Assembly: GCF_017876795.1 (NCBI RefSeq) | Contig: NZ_JAGIOR010000001.1 | Coordinates: 4,366,501 to 4,430,500 of the forward strand | DNA from: Rhizobium leguminosarum | GTDB taxonomy: Bacteria > Pseudomonadota > Alphaproteobacteria > Rhizobiales > Rhizobiaceae | DNA length: 64,000 nt | Direction of reading: 5' to 3' | Made by a program: the position numbers and the translations under genes | Notes under the pieces: generated by a model | Database searches by the model: none | What the model was told of the DNA's origin: nothing | Seen by the model: only the letters and a program-made list of their open reading frames with translations | In this document: positions 22,430 through 64,000 of the stretch, piece by piece | How positions within the stretch are numbered: the first letter of the stretch is position 1 | Layout: every line of letters starts with the position of its first letter

Positions 22430-23434
22430 ATGACTGCCTCATCGATCACCCGCCGCACCTTCGGCCTGTCGGTTGGCGCAGCCGCCCTGTTTTCCCCTAT
22501 AGGAGTTGGCATGTCTCAGACCCTGAGTGCACATCGCGGAAAAATTAAACCCCTGACCGTCAGCTTTGCGAGCGGCGACAGCTATGTGGTCGCGCATCTC
22601 TATCTGCCTGAAGACCACGATCCTGCCAAACGCTACCCTTCCGTGGCCGTGGGTGGGTCCTTCACCTCGGTCAAAGAGCAGATGGGCGGAATCTATGCCG
22701 GCGAAATGGCCCGTCGTGGGGTGATCGCATTGGCCATCGACTACCGGAACTACGGCCAGAGCGGCGGCGCCAAGCGCCAGTACGAGGACCCCGCCGCCAA
22801 GGCCGAGGACCTGTCGGCAGCGCTGCGTTATCTGGCAAGCCGGCCGGATGTGTCCGGAACGGGGCTTCTCGGAATATGCACCTCTGCTGGAACCGCTCTC
22901 TATGCGGCAGCCGAAGACGCCAATGTCGGTGCGGTCGCGACTGTGGCGGGCTTCTATGCTGAGCCAGAGTTAATGACTGCGATGATGAATGGGCGTGAGA
23001 TCATCGAGCGCCTGAGGGCTGACGGTCGCCTCGCACAGGAGATTTACGACCAAACTGGCGAGATCAAGACTATCCTGACCTACCACAATACCGATGAAAC
23101 AGCGGCGCATGTCAGCCCAAGCGAATATTACATGGATCAGACACGCGGTGGCGGCGTTCGATCCTGGCGCAATGAGTTTGCGGTCATGGCTTGGGAGCAC
23201 TGGATCGATTTCGATCCTATATCGCAGGCGTCGCGCGTCACGGCGCCGACTCTCATGATCCACTCCGAGGGTTCGGCCTTCCCAGACCAGGCCCGAAAAG
23301 TCTACGGGCTGCTGGCTGGACCCAAAGAGTTGCATTGGGCCGAAGGTGCGCAATTCGACTTCTATGATCAGGGCGACGCGGTAGGCGACGCCGCCGACCG
23401 CGTTGCTGCGCATTTCCGTGCCACGCTTGGGTAG
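22430..23434 (+). CDS. Tat-type alpha/beta hydrolase, first of a tandem pair
   Basis: This 334-residue hydrolase begins with a twin-arginine-like leader (SITRRTFGLSVGAAALFS), so it is probably exported folded. The core has AIDYRNYGQSGG, a nucleophile region GICTSAGTALYAA where Ser or the preceding Cys could act, an acid near TLMIHSEGSAFPDQ and a C-terminal helix ADRVAAHFRATLG. AAAAGGGAG lies 6 bases before the ATG. Its near-copy follows at 23532; control by the divergent LysR is likely. Substrate unknown. Confidence 0.8.
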   Translation: MTASSITRRTFGLSVGAAALFSPIGVGMSQTLSAHRGKIKPLTVSFASGDSYVVAHLYLPEDHDPAKRYPSVAVGGSFTSVKEQMGGIYAGEMARRGVIALAIDYRNYGQSGGAKRQYEDPAAKAEDLSAALRYLASRPDVSGTGLLGICTSAGTALYAAAEDANVGAVATVAGFYAEPELMTAMMNGREIIERLRADGRLAQEIYDQTGEIKTILTYHNTDETAAHVSPSEYYMDQTRGGGVRSWRNEFAVMAWEHWIDFDPISQASRVTAPTLMIHSEGSAFPDQARKVYGLLAGPKELHWAEGAQFDFYDQGDAVGDAADRVAAHFRATLG

Positions 23435-26944: not shown

Positions 26945-28277
26945 CATAGGCGCTAACTTAGTCTTGACGGTGATGATCGCGGGTGATTCACCTTGGTCAT
27001 GAGCGATTCGTTACAAGCAGTGGATTGGGACGACCTAGTGGAACGGCTAGGCTCGGCGGAAGAGCTGGAGGCGAGCGCACGCGAGGCCGGGGCGCTGCTT
27101 CGCAAACGGCAGGTGGGCGGCGCGGCCGACCTGCTGCGATTGTGTTTCGCCTATGTGCTTGGTGGTTTTTCGCTTCGAACCTTGGCGGCCTGGGCCGATC
27201 AGCGGGGGCTCGCGTCGATGTCCGACGTGGCTATGCTTAAGCGTCTGAAGGCCAGCGCCGATTGGGTGGGCTATCTGGTTTCGGAGTTGCTTGCCGAGCG
27301 CTGCCCCGAAGCCTTCGCCGGTATGCGTAGTGACCTGCGGCTGATGGCGGTTGACGCCACGGTCGTTGCACCGCCTGGGCCTAAGCGGGCCTACTGGATG
27401 GTGCATACGGTGTTCGACCTTTCACGGCTGAAGCTCTGTTCGGTTGAAGTCACCGATCGTCGTGAAGCCGAACGGCTGTCGCGCGGCGTCAAGGCCGGCG
27501 AGCTTCGGATCGCCGACCGTGCCCATGCCAAGGCGACCGATCTGGCTACAGTGGTCAAGGCTGGGGCTGATTTTCTGGTCCGCGCCCCTTCCAGCTATCC
27601 GCGCTTGCTGGATGGCGACGGCCACCTGCTGGATCGCTTGGCGCTCTGCCGCGAAGCGGGCGACAAGGGTGTGCTTGATCGGTCCGTGAGGATCCAGGAC
27701 GGCAAGTCCAAGATCGAGGTGGCGGCACGGGTGGTGATCTTACCTTTACCGCCTGAGGCCGCCGCAAAAGCCAGGCGAGCGGCACGCCGGTTGGCGGCCA
27801 AGGCGCGATACAAGCCTAGCGATGCCGGCATCGAGATGGCCGGCTACCTGGTGCTGCTGACTTCGCTCGCAGCCGACGACTGGCCGCCGGAGCGGCTCGC
27901 CTCGACCTATCGGCTGCGATGGCAGATCGAACTGGCCTTCAAACGCATGAAGTCGTTGATCGGTTTGGAAAGCCTGCGCGCCAAGGACGCTGACCTGGCC
28001 CGCTTGTGGATCAACATCGCCTTGCTCGCCGCGCTGCTGGCCGAAGACGACCTGCCGGCCCTCGATCCCGAGGCGCCGGACTCTCTCCCCCTGGCGGCTT
28101 GAACCGATCCACATTGCCGATCTGGCGTCTTGTTGCCATCGCCATTACCAACATCTCTATCGCCGTCTTGCACGCGACCGTCAGGCCGATCGCCATCGGC
28201 CAGCTGCTTCATCGGCTGCGCGAGCCACCGCGAAGACGACGCGCCATCGCACATCGACAGCTAAGTTAGCGCCTATG
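26945..28277 (+). mobile_element. IS4-family insertion sequence, copy 2
   Basis: This has the same 1333-bp length and 17-bp ends as the copy at 1754, in the opposite direction. The flanks are GGGGCAAGCCC on the left and GGGTCAAGCCC on the right, an 11-bp duplication with one mismatch. It sits at the same point of a REP hairpin as copy 1. Confidence 0.9.
26993..28102 (+). CDS. IS4-family DDE transposase, second copy
   Basis: The 369-residue translation is identical to that of copy 1, with Asp121, Asp175 and the Tyr306/Arg309/Glu313/Lys320 signature intact. The start codon (minor GTG or internal ATG at residue 3) is the same in both. Confidence 0.93.
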   Translation: MVMSDSLQAVDWDDLVERLGSAEELEASAREAGALLRKRQVGGAADLLRLCFAYVLGGFSLRTLAAWADQRGLASMSDVAMLKRLKASADWVGYLVSELLAERCPEAFAGMRSDLRLMAVDATVVAPPGPKRAYWMVHTVFDLSRLKLCSVEVTDRREAERLSRGVKAGELRIADRAHAKATDLATVVKAGADFLVRAPSSYPRLLDGDGHLLDRLALCREAGDKGVLDRSVRIQDGKSKIEVAARVVILPLPPEAAAKARRAARRLAAKARYKPSDAGIEMAGYLVLLTSLAADDWPPERLASTYRLRWQIELAFKRMKSLIGLESLRAKDADLARLWINIALLAALLAEDDLPALDPEAPDSLPLAA

Positions 28278-38917: not shown

Positions 38918-38985
38918 AGCTGTGCGCAAACTGTGCGCTATTCGGGTTTAACGGGAATATCGGGAAGCTAAGTGATCGAAAAAGC

Positions 38986-39035
38986 TGGTCGGAGTGGAGT
39001 GATTCGAACACTCGACCCCCACGTCCCGAACGTGG
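38986..39035 (-). other. 3' half of tRNA-Pro(CGG): attachment-site scar
   Basis: Read on the minus strand, the DNA holds the anticodon stem-loop CCACG-TTCGGGA-CGTGG, then the T arm GAGTG-TTCGAAT-CACTC and acceptor end CACTCCG-A-CCA. The D arm and 5' acceptor strand do not follow (39036 onward is unrelated), so this is not a functional tRNA. Duplicated tRNA 3' ends are the usual att cores of tyrosine integrases, and such a gene lies 13 bases away. Confidence 0.88.
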
Positions 39036-39047
39036 CGGTCGAGAAAT

Positions 39048-40574
39048 TCAAGGTCCCGCATATCCAGCCCTCACAATTGATCTTATTGAGCTTTTTTGAT
39101 TCTCGGGCAATTCCAAGTCAAACCAAGCGATTCCGTTTCTGTCAGTTTCTGTCAGTTTCTGTCCGATGTTTTGCGCCCCCCTCGCCGTCGTCTGGCCCGC
39201 ATCCAAGAAGGAGTCGGCAACCTTTTCGAGGTCCTCTTCTCGGTGCTTTGCGTAGACGTTCACGAGCGTTTCAGTAGTCATGCCGAGATACGCCGCGATA
39301 GCTACAAGCGGCAGATGGGGCTGCTGGCAGAGCTTCGTCGCAGTCGTGTGTCGGAAAGTGTGGATGACCGCGTCGGTGTCCTGTCCGAGAACCTCACGGA
39401 AACATTTCCGCATGGACTTCTGAAGTTCCCCGGGCTCTTCTTTGCCATTGGAACTGTACGGGTACATGCAGGGGTAACGAAGGCCCTGACGCTTCCATTT
39501 CACGCAGTATCGAACCAACAGGCTGGGCATCCGAATCTTAGGCGCTGACTTGTTGTCATACTCGACTTCATCGTCTCCAAGACGATGGAGCCATCCTCTC
39601 CAAATCATTTTGCCAGACGCATCGCGCACCTGCTTCAGCTCGATCCAAGGACGATCTCCCTCGTCTTCGAACGAGGCTAGAGACATGCGGGTCTTACGGG
39701 AACCGGTGAAGTAGGCCAGCAGCATGAACCTTGCCAAATGCCGCCAGATGAACACGGTCTGCTTGGGCTTCTTGTCGATCCATCCCATACCGCGCTTGAA
39801 ATGCGCATGAGTGATCAATCTGATGACCTGCTCATCCGTGAACACGGTGGTGCGCGGATCGTACTTGCCCGTCAGCGGAATTTTGACGTGAATTCGGGTC
39901 AACCGACGTTCATAGGCGCACGTCAGTGCTGAGTTCAGGTCTTGCAGGTAACGGAGTGCGGATTCTGGCTGGAATGGCACAGCAGACACATCGAAGGGTT
40001 CGGGTGCGACTGGCGGTTTCCTCTTTAGTTCCCGAACAATGCGGCCGCTCTTAGCACGAGCGAGTGCCGCAGCGTCCCATTTCTCTTTCTTTTCAAGGTA
40101 TGCCTGAACCTTTCGTGCATGTAATGCCCTAGCCCTAGCTTGTGCCTTATCGCGCAAGAACCGCACGAAATCGTCTCGAGCATCTACGTCGAGGTCGTCG
40201 AGGCTCATCTCCCCGAAAAACTCGAGAATTGTCTTCAGACGGCTAAGGGCTTCGTGTTCTCGTGCAACTGCTTTCTTCTTCTTGTCGCTGCCGGGTATGA
40301 AATTGATGATGCGGACGTCTGCGTACTTTTTGATAGCGTCCGCGACCAGGACGTCCGAGCTGTCCTGGTTCTTAACGACCACCTTCGCCGTCACGTGCTT
40401 CTCAGCAATATATTTCGCGAGAGCCAGTTCCGTCTTTGATCCGTGATCCGGGTCCTGCTTCCCGAAGCCCAGGCTGAATTTGACGGTTTTGCCGTCCGCG
40501 TCGATATCGCGGATGAAGAAGGTGTCGGTACTCTCGTCGTGCCAAGTGCGGGCACCTTTACGCGGTCGAGCCAT
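39048..40574 (-). CDS. int: Tyrosine recombinase / integrase
   Basis: This 508-residue integrase has an N-terminal DNA-binding half, a core-binding domain and a catalytic domain. Visible catalytic residues are Arg in FTGSRKTRMSLASF, His-Arg in IHTFRHTTATKL, and Tyr in LVNVYAKH. A C-terminal extension of about 60 residues contains three copies of a TTTCTGTCAG DNA repeat (near 39135-39165, plus strand). Its 3' end abuts the tRNA-Pro scar, so it should integrate and excise this element there. Confidence 0.92.
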   Translation of the reverse strand: MARPRKGARTWHDESTDTFFIRDIDADGKTVKFSLGFGKQDPDHGSKTELALAKYIAEKHVTAKVVVKNQDSSDVLVADAIKKYADVRIINFIPGSDKKKKAVAREHEALSRLKTILEFFGEMSLDDLDVDARDDFVRFLRDKAQARARALHARKVQAYLEKKEKWDAAALARAKSGRIVRELKRKPPVAPEPFDVSAVPFQPESALRYLQDLNSALTCAYERRLTRIHVKIPLTGKYDPRTTVFTDEQVIRLITHAHFKRGMGWIDKKPKQTVFIWRHLARFMLLAYFTGSRKTRMSLASFEDEGDRPWIELKQVRDASGKMIWRGWLHRLGDDEVEYDNKSAPKIRMPSLLVRYCVKWKRQGLRYPCMYPYSSNGKEEPGELQKSMRKCFREVLGQDTDAVIHTFRHTTATKLCQQPHLPLVAIAAYLGMTTETLVNVYAKHREEDLEKVADSFLDAGQTTARGAQNIGQKLTETDRNGIAWFDLELPENQKSSIRSIVRAGYAGP

Positions 40575-40582
40575 GCAATGTC

Positions 40583-41122
40583 CTACTTCTTCTGTTTCTT
40601 GGCATTGAGCAGAGCCGCGTCGAGGATCGACATCGCCGACATCGTTGCACCAGTCTTCCGTTCTTTATCTCGGGCCGCGACTGCCGCCTCGGTGCGCGGC
40701 GCTCGGGCTGCTCTCGTAGGCTCAGACAGGCCCCCAAGCGCCAACCAGGCTCGTAGCGCCTGGATTGTGACGGTCCACTTGTTGGATTCCTTTTGGCCTT
40801 CCAGATGCCCGTTGCGGATAGCCCGCTCCAACGTGCTAACCTTGTAGGTCGGACTGGGGAGCCGCTCTCCATTGCGCAGCACTTCGCCGCCGAGGATCGG
40901 CAGATAGATCGCATTCGACAAGGTGTGTCTGAAATCCTCGTCGAACGGCCGGGTTGTCCTACCCGCAGCCTCTCCCAAAGCCAGGTCGATAGCCTCATGA
41001 AGCGTGCGGCTGACGGAGTTGCAATACAGTTCGTGCTCCACAATGAGCTCATCGATATCCGCCATCAGACGTCGGCTCACCGCAGCCTCACTCAGTCCGT
41101 CCAGCTCGTCATCTTTGTCCAA
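40583..41122 (-). CDS. Excisionase-like DNA-binding protein (provisional)
   Basis: The 179-residue protein has a central segment YKVSTLERAIRNGHLEGQKE followed by NKWTVTIQALRAWL. This follows the winged-helix pattern of excisionase/MerR-like proteins (s..TL..AI..G.l......W.v....L..WL). It lies 8 bases upstream of the integrase on the same strand. A role in directing excision is inferred. Confidence 0.55.
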   Translation of the reverse strand: MDKDDELDGLSEAAVSRRLMADIDELIVEHELYCNSVSRTLHEAIDLALGEAAGRTTRPFDEDFRHTLSNAIYLPILGGEVLRNGERLPSPTYKVSTLERAIRNGHLEGQKESNKWTVTIQALRAWLALGGLSEPTRAARAPRTEAAVAARDKERKTGATMSAMSILDAALLNAKKQKK

Positions 41123-42376: not shown

Positions 42377-44296
42377 CTAGATCGCAAGCGGAAGCTGTTG
42401 AGAATGAGGCCGGTAGGCATCAAATGCTTCATGAACCTCCGATCCATCGAGCCGACCGCGAAGTCGAAGAAGTTGTGCTACTTCGTCGAGGGCGCACCAA
42501 TTTTGCTCGAGGATCGCCTGAGCGCGGGAGAGCTGGTCTTGCAAGATGTCATCGATCCGTCGACGCAGCGGTGGATCGAAGCTGCGAGCCTGCACAAGGG
42601 AGATCGCGTCACGGTGTCCGTCAGAGACCAGGGTATCTCCCATGCCCAGCGAAGACAGCATGTACGCCGCAGTATTAGAGGCTTCAGCAAGGTCGGCGAC
42701 ACAGCCTTCGGCATGGCCTCCGAAGACCATGCGCTCCGCCGCGACGCCTGCCAGCAGCTGCGCGATCCGATCCACGAACCAACCGGCGTCGTGGTGACCT
42801 TCGCGATGCTTGATGATCGCCACCCCCGCGATCCCATCCTCAGTGCGATCCTTGGAGATCACAACTTCTAGGACTTTGAACCCGAGCGCCGCGGCGACGA
42901 CCGCATGGGCAGCCTCATGCAGGGCAAGGGCATGAATTTCATCTTTGGTGCGGCGTTCGCGCTTCGGAAGACATTTCAGAACGTGCTTGATATTGACGGT
43001 AACGCCGTGACGACGAGCCAGCCGTCGGGCTTCCCGCGCTGCACGTTCGAGGTCAGCGCCAGACATGCCTGCCGAGCGATCGCGAACGACGCTCAAGGGC
43101 GGCAGCTCGGTCCCCAAATGCTGCTCAAGGATCGAAACACGATCTCCGGCGTCGGGCAGTCCGAGTTCGATGTGCCGGTCGAGACGTCCCGAGCGGCGCA
43201 GCGCCTGATCGATCCCGGTCACATTGTTCGCGGCCCCGATGACGATGACGCCCTCGCGTTCCAGCGCGCCGTCTGTGCATTCCAGCAGTGCATTGACAAC
43301 ACCGCGCATCCACTCGTCGGACCGGCCGTGGCCGATACTCCCGCGCGCTACGAAAGCATCGGCCTCGTCGATGAGGATGACCGACGGCGCACACGCATGC
43401 GCTTCGTTGAAGGAAGCCCGCATAGCTCTGATGAGATCGCCCTGGTGTCCTTCGCCGTTAGAAATCCACGCGGCGTAGCCACCGATAACAAAGTGTGCAT
43501 CGAGAGATTTGGCCAGCGCCGAGGCGAAGGTCGTCTTGCCGCACCCGGGTGGTCCCGAAAGCAGGACGGCGTTATCGACGTCAGTCCACGCGATGCAACC
43601 TGCGCTCCAATCTGCGATATCCTTCTTGAGTTCCAGGCCCCAATCTTTTGCAGCCCCGTAGCCGAACAGTTCCTCGAGCGGACGAACGTCCGGAACGTTT
43701 CGAGGGGAAGCTTTGTTCTTGGCCTCGGCTTCCTTCGCTTCAGCTTCGGCTTCCGCCTCGGAGACTTCCATGTGCAGTCGACGGGTCTCTTCGATCGGCC
43801 GAGGCGACAGAAGGGCCAAGCGGCGGCGACGCCACGGCATTCCGATCAGCGTCTTGGCCTCCGCATGACTGATCGCCCGTCCAAATCGGGCTGCCGCCTC
43901 GACGACAAGCTCAACCGAAAACTCAGCTTCGATGATGCCGTCAGCAAGAGCCACGGTTGGATGATTGGCGTCGCTCGTGGCCGCGAAGATCAGGAATGCC
44001 GCGGAGTTAGAGGCGCTGAGGCCGACGTCAATTCCGCATCCCGGCTTGAGTTTTGAGACGCTGATCAAGACTTCGTTGGCGGTGTCGTCAACGAAGTCTT
44101 GGACGTCAAGTTGTCGGGCAGATGCGAGGTCGCGCAGGGCGAGAAAGCCTTCGTCCTCCCAGAGCCCGGCGTCGGAAGTGGGAGGCACGATTACGAGATG
44201 AACACCGCGCGGTGCCAAGCCAAGCCCAGCAACGATGCGGTCGATATGAAGACGAGCGAGAACGCGCTCATAGTCCGGACGGCTTTTATAAGCCAT
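42377..44296 (-). CDS. FtsH-like AAA+ ATPase with M41 zinc protease domain
   Basis: This 639-residue protein has an N-terminal 210-residue region of its own, with an acid/alanine coiled tract (EAEAEAEAKEAEAKNKA), then an AAA+ domain with Walker A LSGPPGCGKTTFA, Walker B VILIDEADAF and arginine finger region RRSGRLDRH. The M41 peptidase follows, with zinc motif HEAAH in LALHEAAHAVVAAALGF and a likely third ligand in GCVADLAEAS. No FtsH-type membrane helices are seen, so it should be soluble. AGGAGG before the ATG at 44296 decides the start. Targets unknown. Confidence 0.88.
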   Translation of the reverse strand: MAYKSRPDYERVLARLHIDRIVAGLGLAPRGVHLVIVPPTSDAGLWEDEGFLALRDLASARQLDVQDFVDDTANEVLISVSKLKPGCGIDVGLSASNSAAFLIFAATSDANHPTVALADGIIEAEFSVELVVEAAARFGRAISHAEAKTLIGMPWRRRRLALLSPRPIEETRRLHMEVSEAEAEAEAKEAEAKNKASPRNVPDVRPLEELFGYGAAKDWGLELKKDIADWSAGCIAWTDVDNAVLLSGPPGCGKTTFASALAKSLDAHFVIGGYAAWISNGEGHQGDLIRAMRASFNEAHACAPSVILIDEADAFVARGSIGHGRSDEWMRGVVNALLECTDGALEREGVIVIGAANNVTGIDQALRRSGRLDRHIELGLPDAGDRVSILEQHLGTELPPLSVVRDRSAGMSGADLERAAREARRLARRHGVTVNIKHVLKCLPKRERRTKDEIHALALHEAAHAVVAAALGFKVLEVVISKDRTEDGIAGVAIIKHREGHHDAGWFVDRIAQLLAGVAAERMVFGGHAEGCVADLAEASNTAAYMLSSLGMGDTLVSDGHRDAISLVQARSFDPPLRRRIDDILQDQLSRAQAILEQNWCALDEVAQLLRLRGRLDGSEVHEAFDAYRPHSQQLPLAI

Positions 44297-44313
44297 GGAG
44301 CCTCCTGCAAAAA

Positions 44314-44358
44314 CCACTAAGCTGGCATCCGAAATGGATGCGCGAGACGGCTTAGTGG
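44314..44358 (-). promoter_or_regulatory. Nested hairpin in the leader of the AAA+ protease gene
   Basis: CCACTAAGC (44314-44322) pairs with GCTTAGTGG (44350-44358), and inside it GCATCC (44325-44330) pairs with GGATGC (44336-44341). It lies between the Rep stop and the ribosome site of the protease gene, so it could end the Rep transcript or control the protease. Confidence 0.55.
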
Positions 44359-47532: not shown

Positions 47533-48177
47533 ATGGCTACATATGAAGGCTCGGGCGATAAGCCCTCAGTCGCACTTCGGCTCAAGCGAGTAGAAGCGAT
47601 CCTAGAAAATCTGAAGCCTGGCGAAGGAGCGCCCTCGGATATCCTCGCGGCCCTCGATCGGCTCTACGACATGTCGTTGCGCGGCGGCATGCACACGGAA
47701 GGCGACGTCACCGCTGACATGGTCGACGGGATGTTCTGGTTCCGCCAGCAGTCGATCTCGTCCTCGGAGAAGAAGTCCATCGTGAGTGTCACCTACGGCG
47801 ACACCGACCAGTTGAACCGGGTGAAGGACATCCCTTTTATCAAGCAGGTCCTCGGCATCGACGCGGACTGGAATTTTGCCATCACCGATCCGAGTGGAGA
47901 CCAGAATCGAGAGTCTTTGGTCGGGAACATCTACGGGCACAAATCCATCTACGCCGATATGTACGGCCGAGGGCAGACCGTCGTCGGCATCGTCGGCAAC
48001 CAGGACCAGCTGACGACGCTCTACGATGACCATGGTTCTGTTTGGCGGGCGATGTACGGCGTCTTCTACAATGTCGACGATGACGCGCCGACGAAGTCGC
48101 TGTTGCAGATGATCCGCGACCTCCGCGACGAGATCGACGATCTCAGGTCGCGCGTCGCCTACCTGGAGTCCCATTGA
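47533..48177 (+). CDS. Phage-like structural protein of unknown function
   Basis: This 214-residue protein has no known domain. It contains LAALDRLYDMSLRGGMHTEG and ends with a coiled-coil-like LRDEIDDLRSRVAYLESH. It overlaps the GpZ-like tail gene (TGATGA), hinting that both belong to one particle or complex. CGGCGTTTCG at 47450-47459 lies in its leader. Confidence 0.5.
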   Translation: MATYEGSGDKPSVALRLKRVEAILENLKPGEGAPSDILAALDRLYDMSLRGGMHTEGDVTADMVDGMFWFRQQSISSSEKKSIVSVTYGDTDQLNRVKDIPFIKQVLGIDADWNFAITDPSGDQNRESLVGNIYGHKSIYADMYGRGQTVVGIVGNQDQLTTLYDDHGSVWRAMYGVFYNVDDDAPTKSLLQMIRDLRDEIDDLRSRVAYLESH

Positions 48178-49001
48178 TGAGCCTGAACCTCATTACCGAT
48201 CTCAGCCGGCACTTCCGCGCTCTTGAATCCGACGTCATGAAGGCGGCCGCTGCCACCTTGAACTCGACCGTCTTCGAAGCCCGCGACAAAGTCATCTCAA
48301 CGTCGAAGCGGACTTTCGACCGGCCGAAAGACTGGTCGACGTCGAAGGCTTGGGTGTTCACAAAGGCCAAGTCGTCCGACGGCACACGGATGTTCGCCGA
48401 ACTCCGGGCAAAGCCTGAACAGGCCAAGGTGCTGCAATACCAAGTCGACGGAGGTATCCGGCGCAAGGGCGATTCTGGCGCAACCAGATACGACGCTCCC
48501 GTCGGTGCCGACGCCGCGCACACCGATGCGTTTGGCGGCATTGCCAAGGGAGCGCTGAAGAAAGTCGCGAAGGCGGCCGCCAAGGAGAAGAAGGATCGCA
48601 GGACCGTCGCCGGCCGTCGTGCTGCTCTTCGTGGTCAACGCCTGACCGCGACGTCGGAGGCACAGCGATCCCGCGCGGCGCTTCGCCTGAAGCCTCTCAA
48701 GTGGGTCAACAAGTCCGCCAATGAACCCGGCACCTTTTTTGGGAAAATCGGCGACACCCGGGGCTTCTGGACCCGTCCAGGCAGATCGTTGGCTGCGCCG
48801 GTACGCCGGACGGGCCTCCGCTCCGTTCAGCCACGAGGCGACAACAAGCCCAAGCTCATCCTAGCCTTCGCGGACCATGCGAAATACCGTAAGCGCGTAC
48901 CGTTCGCCGACGTCATGCAGCGCGCTCGTATCGCAAAGATGTCGACCGCGAACTTCGCTCGGGAACTGGCGAGAGTGCAAGCACGGCGGACATCTCCCTG
49001 A
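48177..49001 (+). CDS. Phage minor tail protein GpZ-like
   Basis: This 274-residue basic protein has the pattern of prophage minor tail protein Z: AAAATLNSTVFEARDKVIST, TFDRPKDW, a middle block with VLQYQVDGGIRRKGD, and FFGKIGDTRGFWTRPG. No other tail genes are near, so it may be a remnant or reused piece. Its ATG overlaps the stop of the previous gene. Confidence 0.55.
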   Translation: MSLNLITDLSRHFRALESDVMKAAAATLNSTVFEARDKVISTSKRTFDRPKDWSTSKAWVFTKAKSSDGTRMFAELRAKPEQAKVLQYQVDGGIRRKGDSGATRYDAPVGADAAHTDAFGGIAKGALKKVAKAAAKEKKDRRTVAGRRAALRGQRLTATSEAQRSRAALRLKPLKWVNKSANEPGTFFGKIGDTRGFWTRPGRSLAAPVRRTGLRSVQPRGDNKPKLILAFADHAKYRKRVPFADVMQRARIAKMSTANFARELARVQARRTSP

Positions 49002-49056
49002 AACGCCGTTTTGTCGCTTGCATCGCCGGCTCCCAGTCTCCCCCTTAAAGGGAGAC
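48999..49056. promoter_or_regulatory. Leader of the nucleotidyltransferase gene with masked ribosome site
   Basis: TGAAACGCCGTTTTG (48999-49013) overlaps the upstream stop and matches the island leader motif; TGTCGCTTGCATCG follows at 49012-49025. GTCTCCC (49036-49042) pairs with GGGAGAC (49050-49056), which contains the Shine-Dalgarno sequence 6 bases before the ATG. Confidence 0.65.
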
Positions 49057-49062
49057 ATCACT

Positions 49063-50025
49063 ATGCAACAAGAATTTCGAATACTCGCGGAGGCGCTCGG
49101 CAATTCGCTCAAGCAGACATGCCGCAACAAAGGCATGGACGTGACGATGGCAGCGTCGCGCCATGTCGACGACCGCATACTCTTTCATCGGAGAGCCGGG
49201 TTCGGCGGCTCGGCGATGATGGTCAAGGGTGGGTGTCTATTCGACCAGCAACTCCGCCCGACCACCGACCTCGATATCGTTACACCCGTGCACTGGACCG
49301 AGGCAGAGCTGCAGAAAGGCTTCGCAAGGATCGCGGAAGCACTGCGTGCCGAAGGCCTATCGATCGATCAGATCAAGATCAAAGAGCTGGACGTCACCAA
49401 CGTTGACCCTGTTGTCCGTGTGGTCATTCAGGGCAAATGCGGGACGCTGCGCGCCCATACGCACGTCGACATTACTTACGCCAGCGGGCCTTTTGCGTTT
49501 CCGCAAGGCGTTCAGCGCCAAGAGTTGCCCTCGCTGTTGCCCAAGCGATATCCGGGAGCCGTCGTCCATGTTCAGCCTCTCGCCGCCGCGGCTGCGGAAA
49601 AGTGGCTTGCGGTGCTGACGCAACGGGACGATGACTTTCGAGCCAAGCACGCCCTCGACCTCTTGAGCTTCGATGTCATGGGCGTCGACCCAGAGGCGGT
49701 CGCGGTGGAACTGCTCCGCGTTGCCCGCCACCGCCGAATTCCCCTGTCATTCTGTTCGCCGTCGCCGCAGGCACTGAACTGGGTCTCTTTCCTGCTGCGC
49801 GGGGATTCGTGGGTCAAGACAGCGGCACAGCGCCGGATCGACGACTTCGATCTGCTGCAGTCGCATGAGTTGCTGAACGACTACTGGTCGCGAACGCACC
49901 GGGCGCTGACCCGGGCGGTCATCGCCCAAGTTCGCCGCGAAAGCAGGACTAAGCCTTCGCTCGTTGACAGGTTGGCCGCCCGGCAGAGCGCTCCGACATA
50001 TCGGCCACCACAACCGACCCCGTGA
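49063..50025 (+). CDS. AbiEii/AbiGii-type nucleotidyltransferase
   Basis: This 320-residue protein contains the AbiEii-family core MMVKGGCLFDQQLRPTTDLD: the GG...L...R.T.DLD nucleotidyltransferase signature with two catalytic Asp. AbiEii proteins are toxins in type IV toxin-antitoxin and abortive-infection systems. No AbiEi antitoxin gene is adjacent, unlike usual loci. The ribosome site may be folded away in a hairpin, an alternative way of holding expression down. Confidence 0.8.
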   Translation: MQQEFRILAEALGNSLKQTCRNKGMDVTMAASRHVDDRILFHRRAGFGGSAMMVKGGCLFDQQLRPTTDLDIVTPVHWTEAELQKGFARIAEALRAEGLSIDQIKIKELDVTNVDPVVRVVIQGKCGTLRAHTHVDITYASGPFAFPQGVQRQELPSLLPKRYPGAVVHVQPLAAAAAEKWLAVLTQRDDDFRAKHALDLLSFDVMGVDPEAVAVELLRVARHRRIPLSFCSPSPQALNWVSFLLRGDSWVKTAAQRRIDDFDLLQSHELLNDYWSRTHRALTRAVIAQVRRESRTKPSLVDRLAARQSAPTYRPPQPTP

Positions 50026-56512: not shown

Positions 56513-57298
56513 TTAATCGGTTCGCCAGCGACGGAGCCGATGCCAGGCGAGGTTTTCTCGATGGGCTGGCGTCAACGAGAGCGGTGGCGCAGTAGAAAGG
56601 GAAAGCTCTTCGGCGGCGATGTCAGACAACGCGGGGGAAGCAATGGGCTTGCCGTCGTCGCCAAAGCTGATCAGGCCGGCATCGAAAGCGGCATCCCAAA
56701 GCGAGGATAGCAATAAGCCGTTGTGAACATCGAGGCGCTGGGCGTCGGATGAGCATTCCGCCCAAGGAATGATGTGCGAGGCGCGTAGCAGTTCGCGGTC
56801 GGTAATGCCGGTTAGTGGGCATGCGCCGTTCCAATAACCCATGAGCGCATCTCGGAAAATGTTTTGGCCGATCCGGACGCGGGTTATCGTTTCCGCCTCA
56901 GTTGCTCCCAGACCTGCCGTCTCCTGCTGAAAGCGCTCAAGCGGGAGTGTGGGGAGGCTCATCGAAAGCCGGTAGACTTGGCTGACTCCCGCATAGAGCT
57001 GTTCGAGGTCAGCGAACATAAACGCCGCAGCATGTCCCTTGGCGCACGGTGTGGCCTGGTCAAAGCCGCGCCCGATCATTTCCCGCGCGGCTCCCGCATG
57101 TTGCACAGACAGGAAGTATGGTCCGACCGCAGCCACCGCGGCCAAGGCGATTTCGCCGGCCGCGGTGGCCGAACGGAAGAATACCCAACCAGCCGCTTGT
57201 TCAGGGCCTATGCGATAACCTTGATCAAAAGCTGCATCCCGCAAATTGGATTCGGCAACGATCGGAATGCCCCAGAGCCTTCTTCCTGTCTCGTTCAT
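56513..57298 (-). CDS. HNH endonuclease (HNH_2 type)
   Basis: This 261-residue protein has a C-terminal HNH nuclease domain: DALMGYWNGACPLTGITDRE, LLRASHIIPWAEC and RLDVHNGLLLSSLWDAAFDA, with the expected Cys, His, Asn and His. The N-terminal 130 residues are a separate, possibly target-sensing part. Its ATG overlaps the methylase stop by 4 bases. A restriction effector partnered with the methylase and helicase is the natural reading. Confidence 0.88.
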   Translation of the reverse strand: MNETGRRLWGIPIVAESNLRDAAFDQGYRIGPEQAAGWVFFRSATAAGEIALAAVAAVGPYFLSVQHAGAAREMIGRGFDQATPCAKGHAAAFMFADLEQLYAGVSQVYRLSMSLPTLPLERFQQETAGLGATEAETITRVRIGQNIFRDALMGYWNGACPLTGITDRELLRASHIIPWAECSSDAQRLDVHNGLLLSSLWDAAFDAGLISFGDDGKPIASPALSDIAAEELSLSTAPPLSLTPAHRENLAWHRLRRWRTD

Positions 57299-60200
57299 TT
57301 GCCGGACGCCAGTCTGTCAAAAGCCCCCAGGACCAACCGACCTGTGCGGTATTCTCCGAACTCTCGAAGCTCGTTTCTCTTGAGTCCTCGGAATGTCTGG
57401 CTGGGGTAGTCATCTCCCATCACGTCTGCGGGATCGAGCACGTAGCGCAGTTCGTCTCGGGTCAGGCCATATTTGATTGCATAGAAGGCATCCAGTTCAG
57501 CACGGAGATGGGCGCGGCGAAGAGGGTCCCAGCCAAACGGCGGCCCACCGTATCCCAAATCAGTGGCAAATGGCTGCATCGAACTGGCCGTATAGCACAG
57601 CTCTACTACACACCGGCTAATCCATTCCAGCTCGTGTTCCGAGTACGTATGTGGCGAGAGCACCGGGAATTGCTTTAGATAGGAATATGTAAGCGACGTT
57701 CCGCCAATTTTCTGCCTGGCACAGAAGTCCAAGGCTAACGCGGTTAAATTTGCGAGCAGGGCAACTGCGTGTCGAATAGAGTGGTTGACAAAATAAAGTG
57801 GGAATTTGTGCCCTACCCCCATCCTCGGAAAAAGGCCGGAAATAACCGTCCGCTCATTCGTGGCGTTGGTGATGTCCCGCCAGCCCATCAACCAACCACG
57901 ATTCCAACCTTTTGCCCTAAGCCGACTTTCGACCTCCTCCTCCGGTACCCAGTAGCGCGGAGTGACCTCGAAAACGGGGTTTTGCTTGTCAGTTTCCGTG
58001 ACTTCTGTCGTCTCCACTCCCTGATACGTCGCCCAACGATGATCGAACTGGTGAATCATCTTGGCCTCGTAGAGAGGGACATAGTGCTGCCGACCGTCGT
58101 GCCAACGCATGCCGTCGCGTGTCAGGCCGGCCTTCGAGAGGTCGGCAGCGGTGCGAAAGAGGGCGCTTTCTGAAGTCATATTGAACAGCCCTTGACGGAA
58201 CTCGATACCCCAAAGGTTTCCCTCCATTCCCCTACCTTCGTCTATTAGCACGGGAACGCGATCGTAAATCTTCGCGGCTAGTTCTGCATCCCTCTCAGAT
58301 CGAAAGACCGGCGCTGTCTTAGTGTTCGGATTAATGCGAGAGATTTGCTTCGGCGAAAGGCAAAACCGCCGCCGCTCGTCCTCCAGTGCGGTCACTTGTC
58401 TCAAAAAGAACGCGAATTCGGCGGGTTGTTTGTTGTCTTTCGCTAGCGTGAGAACACAAAACTTGAAGGCATGGTGAACACCCGGAAACACAAACTCTTC
58501 ATTCTCGAAGGAAAAAAGCGACGAAAGGTAATCTTGTTCGATCAGGTGACCGAAGAAGGGCGCAGTGGTGGCATCGGTGGCGATACCGGTGGGCACTATA
58601 ATGCCTGCTCGACCCTTCCCATTGGTGAGTCGCAAAAAATGCTCGGCAAACAGCGCATAGGTATTCACCTTACCTTTAGCGGTGAGGTCAAATCTTCCGG
58701 ACTCCCGCGAAAACTGATTCGCGGCCTCGAAGGTGCGTTTCGCTCGCTCATAGTCTTGGTAGAGTTCGGGGTTTTCCCGCGTTAACTCAGCAATCGCCTC
58801 CTTACGAGCCGACCCAGCTAGTGCGGCAATGTCAGCGTCTCGAGTCGCAAAATACTCTTCCTCCGAAAGCTGCATGACTTCCCATGGAGGATTACCGATT
58901 ACCACATTAAAACCACCGGCAGCCACGATGTCGGCGAACTCCAGAGGCCAATGGAAGGCGGAGGCGCTGCCGGCGAGGTCGATTGCTGAGGTGAGCTGCG
59001 GGTTGCCCTGCCCGCCCGCTAGCGCGGTTCGAACATCGAGCGTCGTCGGCACCATATCGAGCTCTTTCGAAGTCGCCATCGCCGACTTGCGGAACTGCTT
59101 GGGTCGCAGAAAAGCGGCAATGTAAAGGTCGCTGGCCGTCTTCTTTGCCCACCAGCTCTTGCCAAGATGCAGTGCTGAAAACGCTTCTGCTTTGGCCCGC
59201 AATTGCGCCGGCGTATCCTCGCTCATCTCGTGCAGCTTCTTTGCGGCCGCTGCTAGATCGGCTGCATCTGCATGACCGAACAGGTCGCGCGTTTTGGAAT
59301 CGCGCTGCTGCTTGTTGACCTTGCTGGCAACTTTTGCGGCTTCCTTGTCATCGCCGGTCAGCGCCTTGTAGGCCGCGTCCGGGATTCCCTTTTCTAGGAC
59401 CTTGAGGTCGAAGACACCAAGCAAACTGTCGCCACAGCGGATATTAGCATCGAGGAAACCGAGTGGCTTGCCGGGTTCGACCGTCTCGATCCACAGCGCC
59501 ACCTTGGTCAGCTCGACAGCCATGGGATTGCGATCAACCCCATAAATCGAACTACGCACGACGTCGCGCATAGCGGCGTTGTAATCCGGCGCATCCGGGT
59601 TCCTCGTACGCGCCACGCGCGCTGCCATGCGCCGTGCAGCACCGAGCAGAAAATGGCCCGAACCGCAGGCCGGATCGATGACGGTTAGCTTCAGAATGGC
59701 ATCTGCCCCACCTACCGCCTCTGCCTTGTCGAGCACGGGATCGAGTGTCGAGTCTAGCATAGCCTGAACGAGGCTATCAGGCGTGTAGTAGGAGCCCGAG
59801 ACCTTCCTCGAATTACCCTTGGTCTCCGCGCCGCCGGCGAACGTAAAGGTGCGGCCCTGATTCTCACGGATGGGTACGAGTTCGAGCAAGCTCTCATAAA
59901 CCGAGCCCAGCTCCTCGGTCGCTATGTCGCGCCAGTTGATGCGCACACGCTGACCGTCGTCAACCAGATAGCTCAGCCGGAAAACCGCGGTCAGAAAAGC
60001 CTTGTTCGGCAGCTTCAGATCATGGATGTCGCGCGTCAATTCCGGTGCGAACAGGCCGCCGAGTGCCGGCAGCCCGAGAAGCTTTTCACCACGTTCGAGC
60101 GCGGCGAAAACAACCTGCATACCCTCCCAGGCATCGTGGTGATGATCATGCGCGGTCCGTCTCGCGGAACGCTCGCGAAGATAATCAAAGCCATAGGCGC

Positions 60201-61182
60201 TCTGGTAGAGACCTCGTACGTGGGCCGAAGCCTGTCGGGCGTGTAAAAGATCGCGATCCTCGGCGACTGCAAGGAAGATGAGCCGGTACACGACGCGGAG
60301 CAATTGCTCGAACCAGATGTTGATCTGGACTTCGTTGTTATCCAGCCGGGCGCGGAATTCCGGATTGGCGTCCAGGAAACCTTGACCGAGTGCGACCAGG
60401 GAGTCTTCAACGTTCCCCCGCAGACGCTCGCGCGCCGCGGTACCCGCCTGCTGGCCGGCGGAGCGCCAACGCTCGAGCGAGCAATTTTCCGGAGCCGTGC
60501 CTTCTGCGCCGAAGCGCGTTGCATGGATCAGTAGCCAGAGTGCGGTAAAGTCCGCGAACATTTCATCGCGGAAGATCGCCCCCAGGTCGGCTTCGATGAA
60601 GGCCTGCCGGGTAATCGAGGCATTGTCGCGCATGAGCCTCAGCCGATCGCCGGCAAAGCACAGGCCCCACAGAACCTTATCGTTAGCGTTCAGCCAATCT
60701 TGCAGAAGAACCACAGGAGAGCGGCGGGCAATCGTACCTCCGTTGCCGTCGCCGAGTTCGGGCAGCGATTTGGTGAAGGCGTCCGCATCTCGTAAGGGAG
60801 CGGCGACAACGATCGGCACACGTCCATCTTTCGCTTCGAATGTGATGCGATAGTCGTGCTCTTCGTGATGGTGCCGGTGCGGTCCAGTCAACTTGTCGAA
60901 ACCGAACCCCTGCTGAAGGAAGGAGCGAATGAACTCTGCCGCCTGCACGCTGTTGGGATTCTCGATCCTGGCAAAACCTTGCCAATGAGCCTGAGCAATG
61001 CGGAAGTAGCGGGTGATTTCGTCGCGAAGGCTCGTGCCCTTGGGGCACCCATAGTCCTGCGCAGCCTTCTGGTCCGGCGTGGTGGCAGCGACAAGCGCAA
61101 CCTGCGCCGGCGAGATGAGACCGCCCTCTATGCTGATAGCTGACAGGCCGATATCTGCCGATCTTCTGGCGTAACGCGCCAT
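57295..61182 (-). CDS. Eco57I-type N6-adenine DNA methylase, DrmMI/PglX-like
   Basis: This 1295-residue protein has the SAM-binding motif [13 protein letters not shown] near residue 504 and the N6-adenine catalytic motif NPPW ([13 protein letters not shown]) near 764, with long N- and C-terminal specificity-type regions. Its size and motif order fit DrmMI of class 1 DISARM and PglX of BREX, rather than a simple type II enzyme. It starts on the TAATG overlap with the helicase stop and overlaps the HNH start. It should mark host DNA at adenine. Confidence 0.88.
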
Positions 61183-63968
61183 TATGCCCCCTCCGGCAAT
61201 AGTACATAGATGCCAATAACGTCGGCCGGCATGACCGCCTGAACCTTGACCGCCGCACCGCCTCGAGCCGCTTCGGTCAACCGTAAATGATCCTCTGAAA
61301 GTATTTCGGCCCGCGAGCGGGCATATTCACCAATGGCAATTTCATAGGCGGTATATCGCTCGAGTGCCCTCGTGATCTGCCGCTGGATGGCAGTCTGATC
61401 GAGGTTGCCAGAAGCTTCGTGTTCAAGCAGAGCCAAAGCGTCCGGACCAGTAAGCGATGCATCCTGCTCCGTTCCAGAAAACGCGATGCCAGTCGCTTCT
61501 TCTGCAAGGAGGAGCTTATTGGTTTTGCCGCTGGTGACGAGCTTGAAGCGAAGGCGCAATACCAGCACGGTCGTCATTTCCGTAATCGCATCTGTTCGCC
61601 ACGCGCCGGCACGCCCTAGTGGTGTGAAGGTCGCAGAGCGTGGGTCCAATGCGCCCTCGGTCATTCCTTCCGCGAGGGCCGCGACAAGTGGATGGGCTCG
61701 GCCAACCAACATCGTTTCGGGCGCGGGTTCGTCCGTGAAACCAACGCGACGGGTGCCACGGATACCCCGGAATTCTAACCGCTCGCGAAGGCGATCGGGC
61801 AGCTTGTGGAAATGGACTTTCGGCACTTCGCCGGTTCGGTCGATCGGTGAGCCAATTCGCTTGAGAGCGCGGTCGGTGAAACGGGCAACCTCCTGCGGCC
61901 CTCCATTCAGCGCTCGCATCTTCGACCACTCCGGAATGACCTCTTCAGGCTTCAGGGCACCTTGTGCATAGCGCGCCCGGCTGGCTTTGGCATTCTCTTC
62001 GGCATCACGCCACTTGGCTTCGAACCGGTTGACGGAAGAACCGAAATCGAAATTGTACTGGGTGCGGGGCGTCTTGGACCGCAAGAAGAGTGCCTGCATC
62101 AATGCCGCGGTTAGCCCGTCGCTGTCCTCCGGCATCGGTACCGCGATACCTGTCGCCTTTTGGATCGCGTCCGCCTTCTTCTTGATAACTTGAAGCACCG
62201 CTCCGTCGATCGCACTGTTTTCGCCGAAGACGGTAATCGAGATGACTTCCGTCGATCTCTGGCCATAACGGTCGACGCGTCCTTCCCGCTGCTGATGGCG
62301 CGTCGGATTCCAGGAAAGGTCATAGTGGACGACGGAATTGAATAAGCTCTGAAGGTTGATACCCTCCGACAAGCAATCCGTCGCGACGAGAATGCGTTTG
62401 TCGTGCTCCTCCATGGAATCGACACGAGCGCGTCGCTCTTCCGGCGGAAGGATACCCGTTACGACTTCAACACGGTGAGACGGATATAATTTCCGCAACT
62501 CCTCGCCAACGGCCTCGGCAGTGGCAATGAATCGGCAGAATATTACCGGCTTTGCTCCCTCTGGCAGAATTTGCTTTAGGATAACCTTGATGTGGCTGAT
62601 CTTCGGATCACGATCACGCCTGTTGTCCAGAGCATCTGCTAAGCCGATCAACTCGTTGAGAGCTCTCGTTTCCTCATTGTCGGCGTCCGGCGTCCCCGGC
62701 TCGACATCGCTGTCATCAATCAACCCTTCGGCCTCGTCGAAGACGACCGGCTCAATGGCCTCCGCATCTGAAATGCCTGATAACCTGTTGCGAAGCGCAT
62801 TGGCGGCCGCCGCAGGGGACGAGCCGACGCATCGCATCAGCGCCAGCGTTCCCCAGAAGGCAAGCCGGCGTCGGCCCTGGTCTTCGCCCGCACGGTTGGT
62901 CACCGCCATGCAGTAATCGAGAACCTTCTCTTGAAAGTCCGCAAAATCGCCCGCAAGCGTGTAGGCGAGATCGGTCTTCATGTGCTTTGCGAATGTCCGG
63001 TGCTCGTTCCAGCCCCCCTCGACGATATCCGGTCGTCGGCGCTGAACGTAGTGCTGAGCAAGCCGGCGTCGGTATCGCTCCTGAGCATTGGCGTCGTGTG
63101 TCGCAGGACGATTTGCGAATTCCTTGTCGATGAGGCTCAGCAAGCGATCGAACGCATCCTCGTCCCCGCTATGGGGTGTCGCGGTCAGCAGCAAGAGCTG
63201 CCGGTCATCACTTGAGGCGAGGCGCTGCAACAGTTCGTACCGTTGGTGCCTGCCCTTTTCTCCACCGACGCAGGTGTGCGCCTCGTCGACAATCACCATG
63301 TTCGGGCAGGCTCGCGCAAAATCGTCACGGCGACCATCCGCCTTTATGTAGTCAAGGCTGACGACTGTGAACGGGTAGGCCTCGAACAAGCTCTGTGAGG
63401 CCGGCAAACCGCGTTCGAGGCTGCGTGCGCGAGCTGAAGTGACTGGCACAGCATCGATATCGAACTTTTCGGCAAGCTCGGAGACCCATTGCTCAACGAG
63501 ATGCGGAGGGCAGATAACGGTGAAGCGATCGATTGTGCCACGATCCAGGAGCTCGCGTACGATCAATCCGGCTTCGATGGTTTTGCCAATACCCACGTCA
63601 TCGGCGATCAGGAGACGAACCGTGGGCAACTTGAGCGCCATCATAAGTGGGACGAGCTGATAGGCACGTGGCTCCACGCCCAGCTGGGCCGCGCTTCGAA
63701 AGGGGCCGGCCCCGCGTCGTAAGGATAGCCTCAATGCATCTGCGAGGAGCCTGGCTCCATCTTGGGTATCGATTCGATCGTTGCCCGGTAGGGCGAACGT
63801 CGCCGGTTTGACGGACTCTCGCTCAAGAGCGAGGACAAGACGCTGTGAGTCTTCCTCTGACCCGAGCAGCGGGCGAACGTTGAGAATGCCCTCATCCGGA
63901 GAAGGAAGCACAACCCATTCCCTTCCACGGGCTTCGACGAGGTCGCCCGGAGCAAATCGAACAGTCAT
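61182..63968 (-). CDS. SNF2/DEAD-type helicase, DrmD-like
   Basis: This 928-residue superfamily-2 helicase has Walker A DDVGIGKTIEAGL (about 122-134), DEAH-type IVDEAHTC near 225, motif III LLTATPHSGDEDAF and motif VI QQREGRVDRYGQRS near 570. The C-terminal 300 residues are accessory. The pattern fits DrmD, the SNF2-like helicase of class 1 DISARM. GGGAGA precedes the ATG at 63968. It is first of the three coupled genes in the window; upstream genes lie beyond the edge. Confidence 0.87.
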   Translation of the reverse strand: MTVRFAPGDLVEARGREWVVLPSPDEGILNVRPLLGSEEDSQRLVLALERESVKPATFALPGNDRIDTQDGARLLADALRLSLRRGAGPFRSAAQLGVEPRAYQLVPLMMALKLPTVRLLIADDVGIGKTIEAGLIVRELLDRGTIDRFTVICPPHLVEQWVSELAEKFDIDAVPVTSARARSLERGLPASQSLFEAYPFTVVSLDYIKADGRRDDFARACPNMVIVDEAHTCVGGEKGRHQRYELLQRLASSDDRQLLLLTATPHSGDEDAFDRLLSLIDKEFANRPATHDANAQERYRRRLAQHYVQRRRPDIVEGGWNEHRTFAKHMKTDLAYTLAGDFADFQEKVLDYCMAVTNRAGEDQGRRRLAFWGTLALMRCVGSSPAAAANALRNRLSGISDAEAIEPVVFDEAEGLIDDSDVEPGTPDADNEETRALNELIGLADALDNRRDRDPKISHIKVILKQILPEGAKPVIFCRFIATAEAVGEELRKLYPSHRVEVVTGILPPEERRARVDSMEEHDKRILVATDCLSEGINLQSLFNSVVHYDLSWNPTRHQQREGRVDRYGQRSTEVISITVFGENSAIDGAVLQVIKKKADAIQKATGIAVPMPEDSDGLTAALMQALFLRSKTPRTQYNFDFGSSVNRFEAKWRDAEENAKASRARYAQGALKPEEVIPEWSKMRALNGGPQEVARFTDRALKRIGSPIDRTGEVPKVHFHKLPDRLRERLEFRGIRGTRRVGFTDEPAPETMLVGRAHPLVAALAEGMTEGALDPRSATFTPLGRAGAWRTDAITEMTTVLVLRLRFKLVTSGKTNKLLLAEEATGIAFSGTEQDASLTGPDALALLEHEASGNLDQTAIQRQITRALERYTAYEIAIGEYARSRAEILSEDHLRLTEAARGGAAVKVQAVMPADVIGIYVLLPEGA

Positions 63969-64000
63969 AACTTATCTCCCGAAGTACGATGCCAAACTGG
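63969..64000. other. Start of the helicase leader, cut by the window edge
   Basis: It contains the GGGAG ribosome site for the helicase. Whether a promoter or another gene lies beyond cannot be seen. Confidence 0.5.

What the first reader, a model, noticed from the sequence alone, without database searches (positions are those of the whole stretch)
56513..63968. Coupled helicase - giant adenine methylase - HNH operon: a DISARM-like system with an unusual effector
The three genes are joined by a TAATG and an ATGA overlap, so they are made as one unit. The helicase and methylase look like DrmD and DrmMI, but in class 1 DISARM these are followed by drmA, drmB and drmC. Here an HNH nuclease takes that place and no drmABC is seen downstream. 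It may be a reduced or alternative defence system in which HNH supplies cleavage, or the first half of a longer locus whose other genes lie beyond base 64000.
Basis: partly seen in the sequence, partly recalled or inferred. Interest (0 to 1): 0.82.

Follow-up and report, generated by a model that had tools for sequence, protein, structure and literature searches.

The report
ARMADA defence operon with HNH nuclease
The three genes are the back end of a four-gene anti-phage defence operon of the recently named ARMADA kind, in a lineage whose built-in DNA-cutting domain has decayed while a separate DNA-cutting enzyme has become a close partner, which suggests one cutter has taken over from the other.

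Summary
The genes lie on the minus strand in the order helicase, methylase, HNH, joined by TAATG and ATGA. The missing gene is just right of the window, upstream: one 1,713-aa YprA-like helicase with a fused DUF1998-type zinc domain, ending 3 bp before the SNF2 helicase. That is ARMADA type I gene order (PMC12458937), not DISARM. New here: the HNH. Of 102 related loci, 59 have HNH and a decayed C-terminal Vsr-like nuclease, 20 have no HNH and an intact one, 5 have both, 1 has neither (L122, methylase gene broken) and 17 were not scorable. In a mixture-model tree the HNH loci form one clade and all three Vsr changes lie inside it; that nesting alone could be chance (about 0.21). The four active-site residues of the VcaM4I relative are kept in 57 of 57 complete HNH rows, and HNH diverges in step with the helicases. 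Likeliest: HNH is the cutting subunit of this ARMADA branch. The operon sits in a probable 36-kb element in tRNA-Pro.

The parts
63972..64000 (-). Last 29 bases of the first gene of the operon, the YprA-like (ArmC-type) helicase, 1,713 aa; the gene runs on to extended coordinate 69113 (L003:1472-6613). Its C-terminal Vsr-like nuclease domain has lost its catalytic residues.
61182..63968 (-). SNF2/RapA-type helicase (ArmA/BrxHII/DrmD-like), 928 aa, with DEAH box
57295..61182 (-). N6-adenine DNA methylase (ArmB/PglX/DrmMI-like), 1,295 aa, with DPACGSG and NPPW motifs
56513..57298 (-). HNH nuclease, 261 aa, last gene of the operon
56534..56926 (-). HNH domain, residues 125-255, closest solved relative VcaM4I; putative active site H175, N193, D202, D206
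56939..57298 (-). N-terminal alpha+beta domain of the HNH protein, about residues 1-120, outside the stretch that aligns to VcaM4I; weak resemblance to the DNA-binding domain of phage T4 MotA
38983..39035 (.). 53-bp direct repeat, exact copy of the 3' end of tRNA-Pro that also stands at extended coordinate 74841 (L003:12341); probable left attachment site of the element that carries the operon
39048..40574 (-). Integrase of the element, 508 aa (PHROGs integrase E 2.6e-20; Pfam Phage_integrase only 18.3 bits, under its cut-off of 27.1)
40583..41122 (-). Possible excisionase, 179 aa (weak PHROGs match, E 1.2e-4)

Best explanation
A four-gene ARMADA type I defence operon (YprA-like helicase, SNF2 helicase, adenine methylase, HNH) of a large branch in which the nuclease built into the YprA-like helicase has lost its active site. 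Shown from sequence: gene order, intact helicase and methylase motifs, decayed Vsr-like tail, complete HNH active site, repeated linkage and co-divergence of HNH with the helicases. Inferred: the methylase marks host DNA; the two helicases survey DNA and engage unmarked or abnormal phage DNA; the HNH protein, held in check by its linker helix as in VcaM4I, is recruited or released by the helicase complex and cuts. In evolution the HNH gene joined first, some lineages still carry both nucleases, and the fused Vsr domain then decayed in at least three lines.
For: Gene order and domains match ARMADA type I. Of 102 related loci: 59 decayed Vsr with HNH, 20 intact Vsr without HNH, 5 with both, 1 with neither, 17 not scorable. 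Mixture-model tree of 72 loci built without the Vsr region: one clade of 54 (SH-aLRT 99) holds all HNH loci on it; the 18 loci outside all have an intact Vsr; 3 changes of Vsr state, by inspection all inside that clade. HNH active-site residues equal to VcaM4I H224, N241, D250, D254 are kept in 57 of 57 complete rows of 59. Distances among HNH proteins follow those of the YprA-like (r 0.89) and SNF2 (r 0.91) helicases over 58 loci; methylase and YprA-like give 0.81, the two helicases 0.97, HNH and methylase 0.76. Intact tails match Pfam DUF559 above cut-off (3 of 3 tested); decayed tails match nothing (3 of 3 tested). The full-length HNH family is rare: in 385 genomes of the class it is in 4, three with the operon and one beside a 102-aa piece of its SNF2 helicase.
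Against: No experiment. L122 has a decayed Vsr and no HNH on the rest of its contig: after methylase and ATPase come an aconitase-like ORF and other ORFs that read by eye like housekeeping genes, none matching the HNH profile; its methylase gene is broken (change of frame and about 1 kb of extra DNA), so the operon may be dead, but it shows that HNH can be absent. L063 (G581) and L041 (G049, not among the 102) are decayed and their draft genomes show no HNH match; L063's contig ends inside the methylase, L041's 78 bp after the methylase frame. Three Vsr losses nested in the HNH clade could be chance (about 0.21 if losses fall by branch length). HNH state changes twice on the mixture tree once L122 is counted (once without it); a FastTree of 100 loci puts nine beta-proteobacterial loci elsewhere and needs three (two without L122). 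Five loci have both nucleases, so HNH presence does not force loss. The HNH is a relative of modification-dependent enzymes, so it could act alone. The ARMADA mutants told include none in the Vsr nuclease, so whether ARMADA needs any nuclease is unknown.
Confidence: 0.57

Rival explanations
1. The HNH protein is a separate modification-dependent (type IV) restriction enzyme that travels with ARMADA and kills phages with modified DNA that the methylase-based system cannot tell from self; it is a partner system, not a subunit.
For: Its HNH domain is closest to VcaM4I and TagI, both modification-dependent enzymes. In 47 of 64 loci more than 300 bp stand between methylase and HNH, GmrSD or DUF262 genes are neighbours upstream in the window's genome and in a Paracoccus plasmid, and L122 has the other genes without HNH.
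Against: Only residues from about 121 on align to VcaM4I, so its EVE sensor is not matched. Of the 8 genomes with a full-length member in the class and phylum samples, 6 have the operon; of the other 2 one has HNH beside a helicase remnant and one at a contig end beside a gene like that before HNH in L037. The family diverges in step with the helicases, and this view does not explain why the Vsr site decays only within the HNH clade.
Confidence: 0.24
2. ARMADA does not need a nuclease: the helicases block phage replication themselves, the Vsr tail is kept for structure in one branch and dispensable in another, and HNH is an accessory back-up effector.
For: In the E. [quoted passage not shown] HNH co-occurs with an intact Vsr in 5 loci, and L122 has neither.
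Against: 84 of 85 scored loci have HNH or an intact Vsr site, and the exception has a broken methylase gene; the loci are related, so this is weak.
Confidence: 0.16
3. A reduced or alternative DISARM in which HNH replaces DrmC.
For: Helicase and methylase are relatives of DrmD and DrmMI.
Against: The upstream gene is a fused YprA-like helicase nearer to DruE than to DrmA; the DrmD match is below the curated cut-off; no separate DrmB among the proteins scanned.
Confidence: 0.03

Closest known systems
ARMADA type I (Bell et al. 2025 preprint, PMC12458937; passages, parts 1 and 2 of Results and one methods section)
   Same: YprA-like helicase first, then BrxHII/RapA-like helicase, then PglX-like methylase. 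Carriage on tRNA-inserted mobile elements is described there for islands with ARMADA type II.
   [quoted passage not shown] here the Vsr site is lost and an HNH gene closes the operon.
ARMADA type II (same paper)
   Same: Shares homologues of three proteins.
   Different: Other gene order and a GajB-like helicase with RelE-like domain as fourth gene; here HNH is fourth.
DISARM class 1 (gene set as told in PMC12458937 and recalled)
   Same: DrmD-like helicase, DrmMI-like methylase.
   Different: No separate drmA, drmB or drmC among the proteins scanned; the DUF1998-type domain is fused to the helicase.
BREX-related (BR) type 1 systems (Rakesh and Krishnan 2026, PMC12839542; abstract, passages and one section)
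   Same: The authors describe loci lacking the helicase-fused REase in which a nearby nuclease (HNH among others) likely compensates: the same idea.
   Different: Those systems are centred on a DUF499 ATPase; the words ARMADA, YprA and DUF1998 do not occur in that main text.
VcaM4I, EVE-HNH modification-dependent endonuclease (PDB 6yex; PMC7897488, passages)
   Different: N-terminal sensor is EVE there; here another alpha+beta domain.

Membership tests
ARMADA type I | YprA-like helicase with fused DUF1998-type zinc domain | tested here: met
   DEAD and MZB (MrfA Zn-binding) domains above cut-off in one 1,713-aa protein; best PADLOC hits are Druantia DruE
ARMADA type I | BrxHII/RapA-like helicase gene | tested here: met
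   SNF2 domain; BrxHI|BrxHII models 207 and 175 bits, DrmD 264, a model labelled DpdE 618 bits over nearly its whole length; NCBIfam RapA 131 bits, under its cut-off
ARMADA type I | PglX-like adenine methylase gene | tested here: met
   Eco57I and N6_Mtase domains; DrmMI 226 bits, PglX 66 bits; NCBIfam PglX models far under their cut-offs; NPPW motif
ARMADA type I | Order YprA, BrxHII-like, PglX-like | tested here: met
ARMADA type I | Predicted active Vsr-type nuclease at the C-terminus of the YprA-like protein | tested here: not met
   D, DG and H of the motif absent in the window's protein. The paper says YprA helicases of ARMADA typically have the nuclease; hence filed as a variant, not a plain member
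ARMADA type I | Place inside the published type I clade of the YprA tree | not tested
   the paper's reference sequences were not fetched; gene order and domains are the only ground for the type
DISARM | separate drmA, drmB (DUF1998) and drmC genes next to the pair | tested here: not met
   fused YprA-like gene directly upstream instead; none of the 10 proteins scanned is a DrmB or DrmC by its listed matches; genes farther off were not scanned
DISARM | DrmD above curated cut-off | tested here: not met
   NF038317 296.7 bits, cut-off 610
BREX | pglZ and brxC | not tested
   no direct search for these families
Dpd | DpdA and 7-deazaguanine genes | not tested
   a DpdE-labelled PADLOC model is the best hit of the SNF2 helicase but NCBIfam DpdE is below cut-off, 197 of 500 bits
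Modification-dependent HNH enzymes (VcaM4I type) | HNH active site H, N, D, D | tested here: met
Modification-dependent HNH enzymes (VcaM4I type) | PUA/EVE or other known modification-sensing domain | tested here: inconclusive

The most novel reading that the evidence does not exclude
A nuclease hand-over caught in progress: a single acquisition of an HNH gene at the base of a large ARMADA type I branch made the helicase-fused Vsr nuclease redundant, some lineages still have both, and the Vsr domain then died at least three times, leaving HNH as the obligatory cutting subunit recruited to the helicase complex through a new N-terminal domain, while other defence genes are loaded between methylase and HNH.
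Probability: 0.42. Interest if true: 0.62.

Novelty: new variant of a known kind. Interest (0 to 1): 0.5.

Why it matters
How ARMADA, Druantia and DISARM destroy phage DNA is open; a 2026 review passage names ARMADA, BREX, DISARM, MADS and Druantia as restricting by unknown mechanisms (PMC12904381, passage seen). Loci with only Vsr, both nucleases, or only HNH are natural versions of one system that can be compared directly: they predict which active site matters in which host, and they point to HNH-only operons as the clean system in which to test whether ARMADA needs a nuclease at all. It also means that ARMADA annotation should look for HNH and should not assume an active Vsr.

Tried and rejected
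Reduced DISARM: rejected, see membership test. A strict swap of Vsr for HNH: my first view (note) and wrong; extending the loci showed five with both nucleases. The upstream GmrSD as part of the system: a relative of it was found in 0 of 80 loci L080-L159 at E 1e-8; in 57 of them the YprA-like frame starts more than 2.5 kb into the locus. Sign test on independent pairs: only 1-2 pairs, uninformative. Terminator after HNH: none found by pattern, 1.1 expected by chance, says nothing. A model of the decayed Vsr tail (alignment A3) and a Foldseek search of the HNH model could not be run: the machine was busy each time; for the latter the VIA-align second look was run instead. EVE, PUA and SRA folds are not among its listed matches to the N-terminal part, but the list is filled by HNH domains, so this shows nothing.

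How loci were scored: the 102 rows are the window's operon, 21 loci from genome samples and the 80 best of 534 confirmed stretches of one capped scan, led by the window's protein, so they lean to its kin. L040 (YprA in two frames, HNH present, decayed tail), L041 and L067 (short pieces) were left out. L140 and L077 appear to be one contig held twice; some other rows are near-identical. Of the 20 intact loci scored as without HNH, 11 have contigs running 8 kb or more past the operon (L132, L136, L155, L156, L159, L065, L066, L072, L073, L075, L076); 9 rest on absence from draft assemblies, some incomplete (L071, L074, L077, L078, L079, L134, L138, L157, L158). L134 is the weakest: its genome has a 153-bit partial match (profile 47-255) on what by its position is another contig; if that belongs, 20 and 5 become 19 and 6. 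Only part of HNH is seen in the stretch of L036, L038, L080, L081, L102, L115, L125 and L150; whole ones are seen for L036 and L038 and for L080. L131's HNH match is a short end piece beside transposase-like ORFs and was left unscored. L148 and L154 are divergent (L148 without a methylase match) but counted as HNH-positive. For the tree, 30 of 102 rows (long, short or near-duplicate) were dropped beforehand and every second well-filled column was used. Of the 7 class genomes with a YprA match at E 1e-60, 3 have the HNH; of the 14 phylum genomes, 4.
Full report
What is there. The window is bases 4,366,501-4,430,500 of contig 1 of a 7.58-Mb genome. The three genes are on the minus strand and read right to left: SNF2-type helicase, adenine methylase, HNH. 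Junctions are TAATG and ATGA. Because of the direction, the gene before the helicase is outside the window on the right. It ends 3 bp before the helicase's ATG and encodes 1,713 aa with a DEAD helicase core and a fused MrfA-type zinc-binding domain. Its best PADLOC matches are Druantia DruE (288 bits), then DpdJ (99); the best DrmA shown has 60 bits. So the operon has four genes.

What it is filed under. Bell et al. (PMC12458937; [quoted passage not shown] All three and their order are met here. They state that the C-terminal domain of the YprA-like protein in ARMADA I and II is a predicted active Vsr nuclease. That feature is not met here. HNH occurs in that main text only in the reference list; its supplements were not open to me. 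Searches for ARMADA with YprA or HNH or Druantia, and for DISARM with HNH and Vsr, listed only that paper and two others (open-licence PMC papers only); in passages of those two no HNH of ARMADA is told, the HNH of one being ZorE of Zorya.

The comparison. I searched 297 genomes of the order, 385 of the class and 398 of the phylum with the YprA-like protein, fetched the loci found, and took the best 80 loci of one capped scan of one genome for each of 84,980 species. In 102 aligned proteins I read five columns of the Vsr-like site and scored four. Intact tails read like ADFGYS..IYIDGPHHE and match Pfam DUF559 above its cut-off in 3 of 3 tested; decayed tails lack the motif and match nothing in 3 of 3 tested. 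The window's protein is decayed. The exception, L122, has a methylase gene broken by a change of frame and about 1 kb of extra DNA, and after its ATPase gene an aconitase-like ORF. Two more decayed loci, L063 and L041 (the latter not among the 102), lie in draft genomes without an HNH match, their contigs ending inside or just after the methylase. Further weak points are told under Tried and rejected.

Order of events. With the Vsr region left out, a mixture-model tree of 72 loci puts all HNH loci in one clade of 54 with SH-aLRT 99; the 18 loci outside are all intact. It needs three changes of Vsr state, by inspection L133, L123 and the stem of the large branch that holds the window, and one change of HNH state, or two with L122 as absent. 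The five loci with both nucleases are beta-proteobacterial members of the same clade. This suggests HNH first, Vsr decay after; the root is at the midpoint, so gain and loss are not told apart by the count. Two cautions: a FastTree of 100 loci separates the beta-proteobacterial group and needs two HNH changes, three with L122, and three losses in a clade with 60% of the tree length could be chance (0.21).

Is HNH a real part? Its distances follow those of the helicases (Mantel r 0.89 with YprA-like, 0.91 with SNF2, 58 loci; methylase with YprA-like 0.81, HNH with methylase 0.76, helicases with each other 0.97); descent as a linked block would give this too. In 385 class genomes 16 have some match at E 1e-20, 4 of them over nearly the whole profile and 12 over the HNH half only; of the 4, three have the operon and one has HNH beside a 102-aa piece of the SNF2 helicase. 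In 398 phylum genomes, overlapping that sample in part, 6 have it at E 1e-55: four with the operon, the same remnant, and one on a 9-kb contig beside a gene like the one that precedes HNH in L037, with no YprA match in that genome at E 1e-60. HNH starts within 300 bp of the methylase in 17 of 64 loci, after 0.3-3 kb in 31 and after more in 16; an ATPase of about 660 aa stands between in 29 of the 64, one of two such proteins tested having weak LmuB and DUF2326 similarity. Two annotated plasmids show the same arrangement: Agrobacterium deltaense pEL101-243 and Paracoccus marcusii pCP157_06; 12 of 72,556 plasmid records carry a relative of the HNH at E 1e-30, of which I looked at these two.

Mechanism. 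Shown: intact DEAH/DELH boxes and methylase motifs, the P-loop of the YprA-like helicase invariant in 11 of 11 aligned, dead Vsr site, complete HNH site. Inferred: self-marking by methylation, surveillance by two helicases, cutting by HNH. Bell et al. [quoted passage not shown] coli type II genes and most of the motif mutants tested abolish protection, and in that section no nuclease mutant, so whether a nuclease is needed is open.

Setting. A 53-bp exact repeat of the 3' end of tRNA-Pro stands at 38983 and at extended coordinate 74841, with an integrase and a possible excisionase beside the left copy. The operon and an upstream GmrSD gene lie between, so they probably belong to a mobile element of about 35.9 kb; no empty site was looked for. 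Left of the left repeat is what I read by eye as the end of another integrase gene, so islands may be stacked there.

Verdict. A real, recurrent and apparently undescribed variant of a system described in 2025; the sequence case for HNH as a regular component of this branch is strong, the case for a nuclease hand-over is fair and rests on few independent events, with one exception in a damaged locus.

Noticed in passing
window 38983-39035 and extended coordinate 74841 (L003:12341): 53-bp exact tRNA-Pro repeat bounding a probable integrative element of about 35.9 kb with integrase 39048-40574; left of it the DNA reads by eye like the end of a second integrase, so islands may be stacked.
   Followed up: partly
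L003:7499-9625 (extended coordinates 69999-72125), minus strand: GmrSD-type restriction gene (GmrSD_N and GmrSD_C above cut-off), 708 aa, 885 bp upstream of the YprA-like gene.
   Followed up: partly
window 48174-49001, plus strand: Protein with a phage minor-tail match (PHROGs 1924, E 7e-19) inside the element: possible prophage remnant.
   Followed up: no
window 48877-50025, plus strand: AbiEii-type nucleotidyltransferase (Pfam E 8e-11) inside the element; no partner was looked for.
   Followed up: no
window 42377-44317, minus strand: AAA ATPase fused to an M41 (FtsH-type) peptidase domain inside the element, 646 aa.
   Followed up: no
window 22430-23434 and 23532-24653; 1929-3038 and 26993-28102: Two pairs of ORFs begin with nearly the same or the same 60 residues: recent duplications or repeated elements.
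   Followed up: no
window 61182-63968 against PADLOC model PDLC02853 (labelled DpdE): The model matches the SNF2 helicase over nearly its full length at 618 bits, far above other DpdE models; it may be built from ARMADA helicases and mislabel them.
   Followed up: no
L085, L092, L107, L111, L112, L114, L133 between methylase and HNH: Variable other genes between methylase and HNH, defence-like where tested or by eye (HD-domain in L085, AAA_15 in L107, DUF262-like in L114): perhaps a loading site inside the operon.
   Followed up: partly
L122 (rest of its contig: L184): ARMADA locus with decayed Vsr, broken methylase gene and no HNH before an aconitase-like ORF: the one scored exception.
   Followed up: yes
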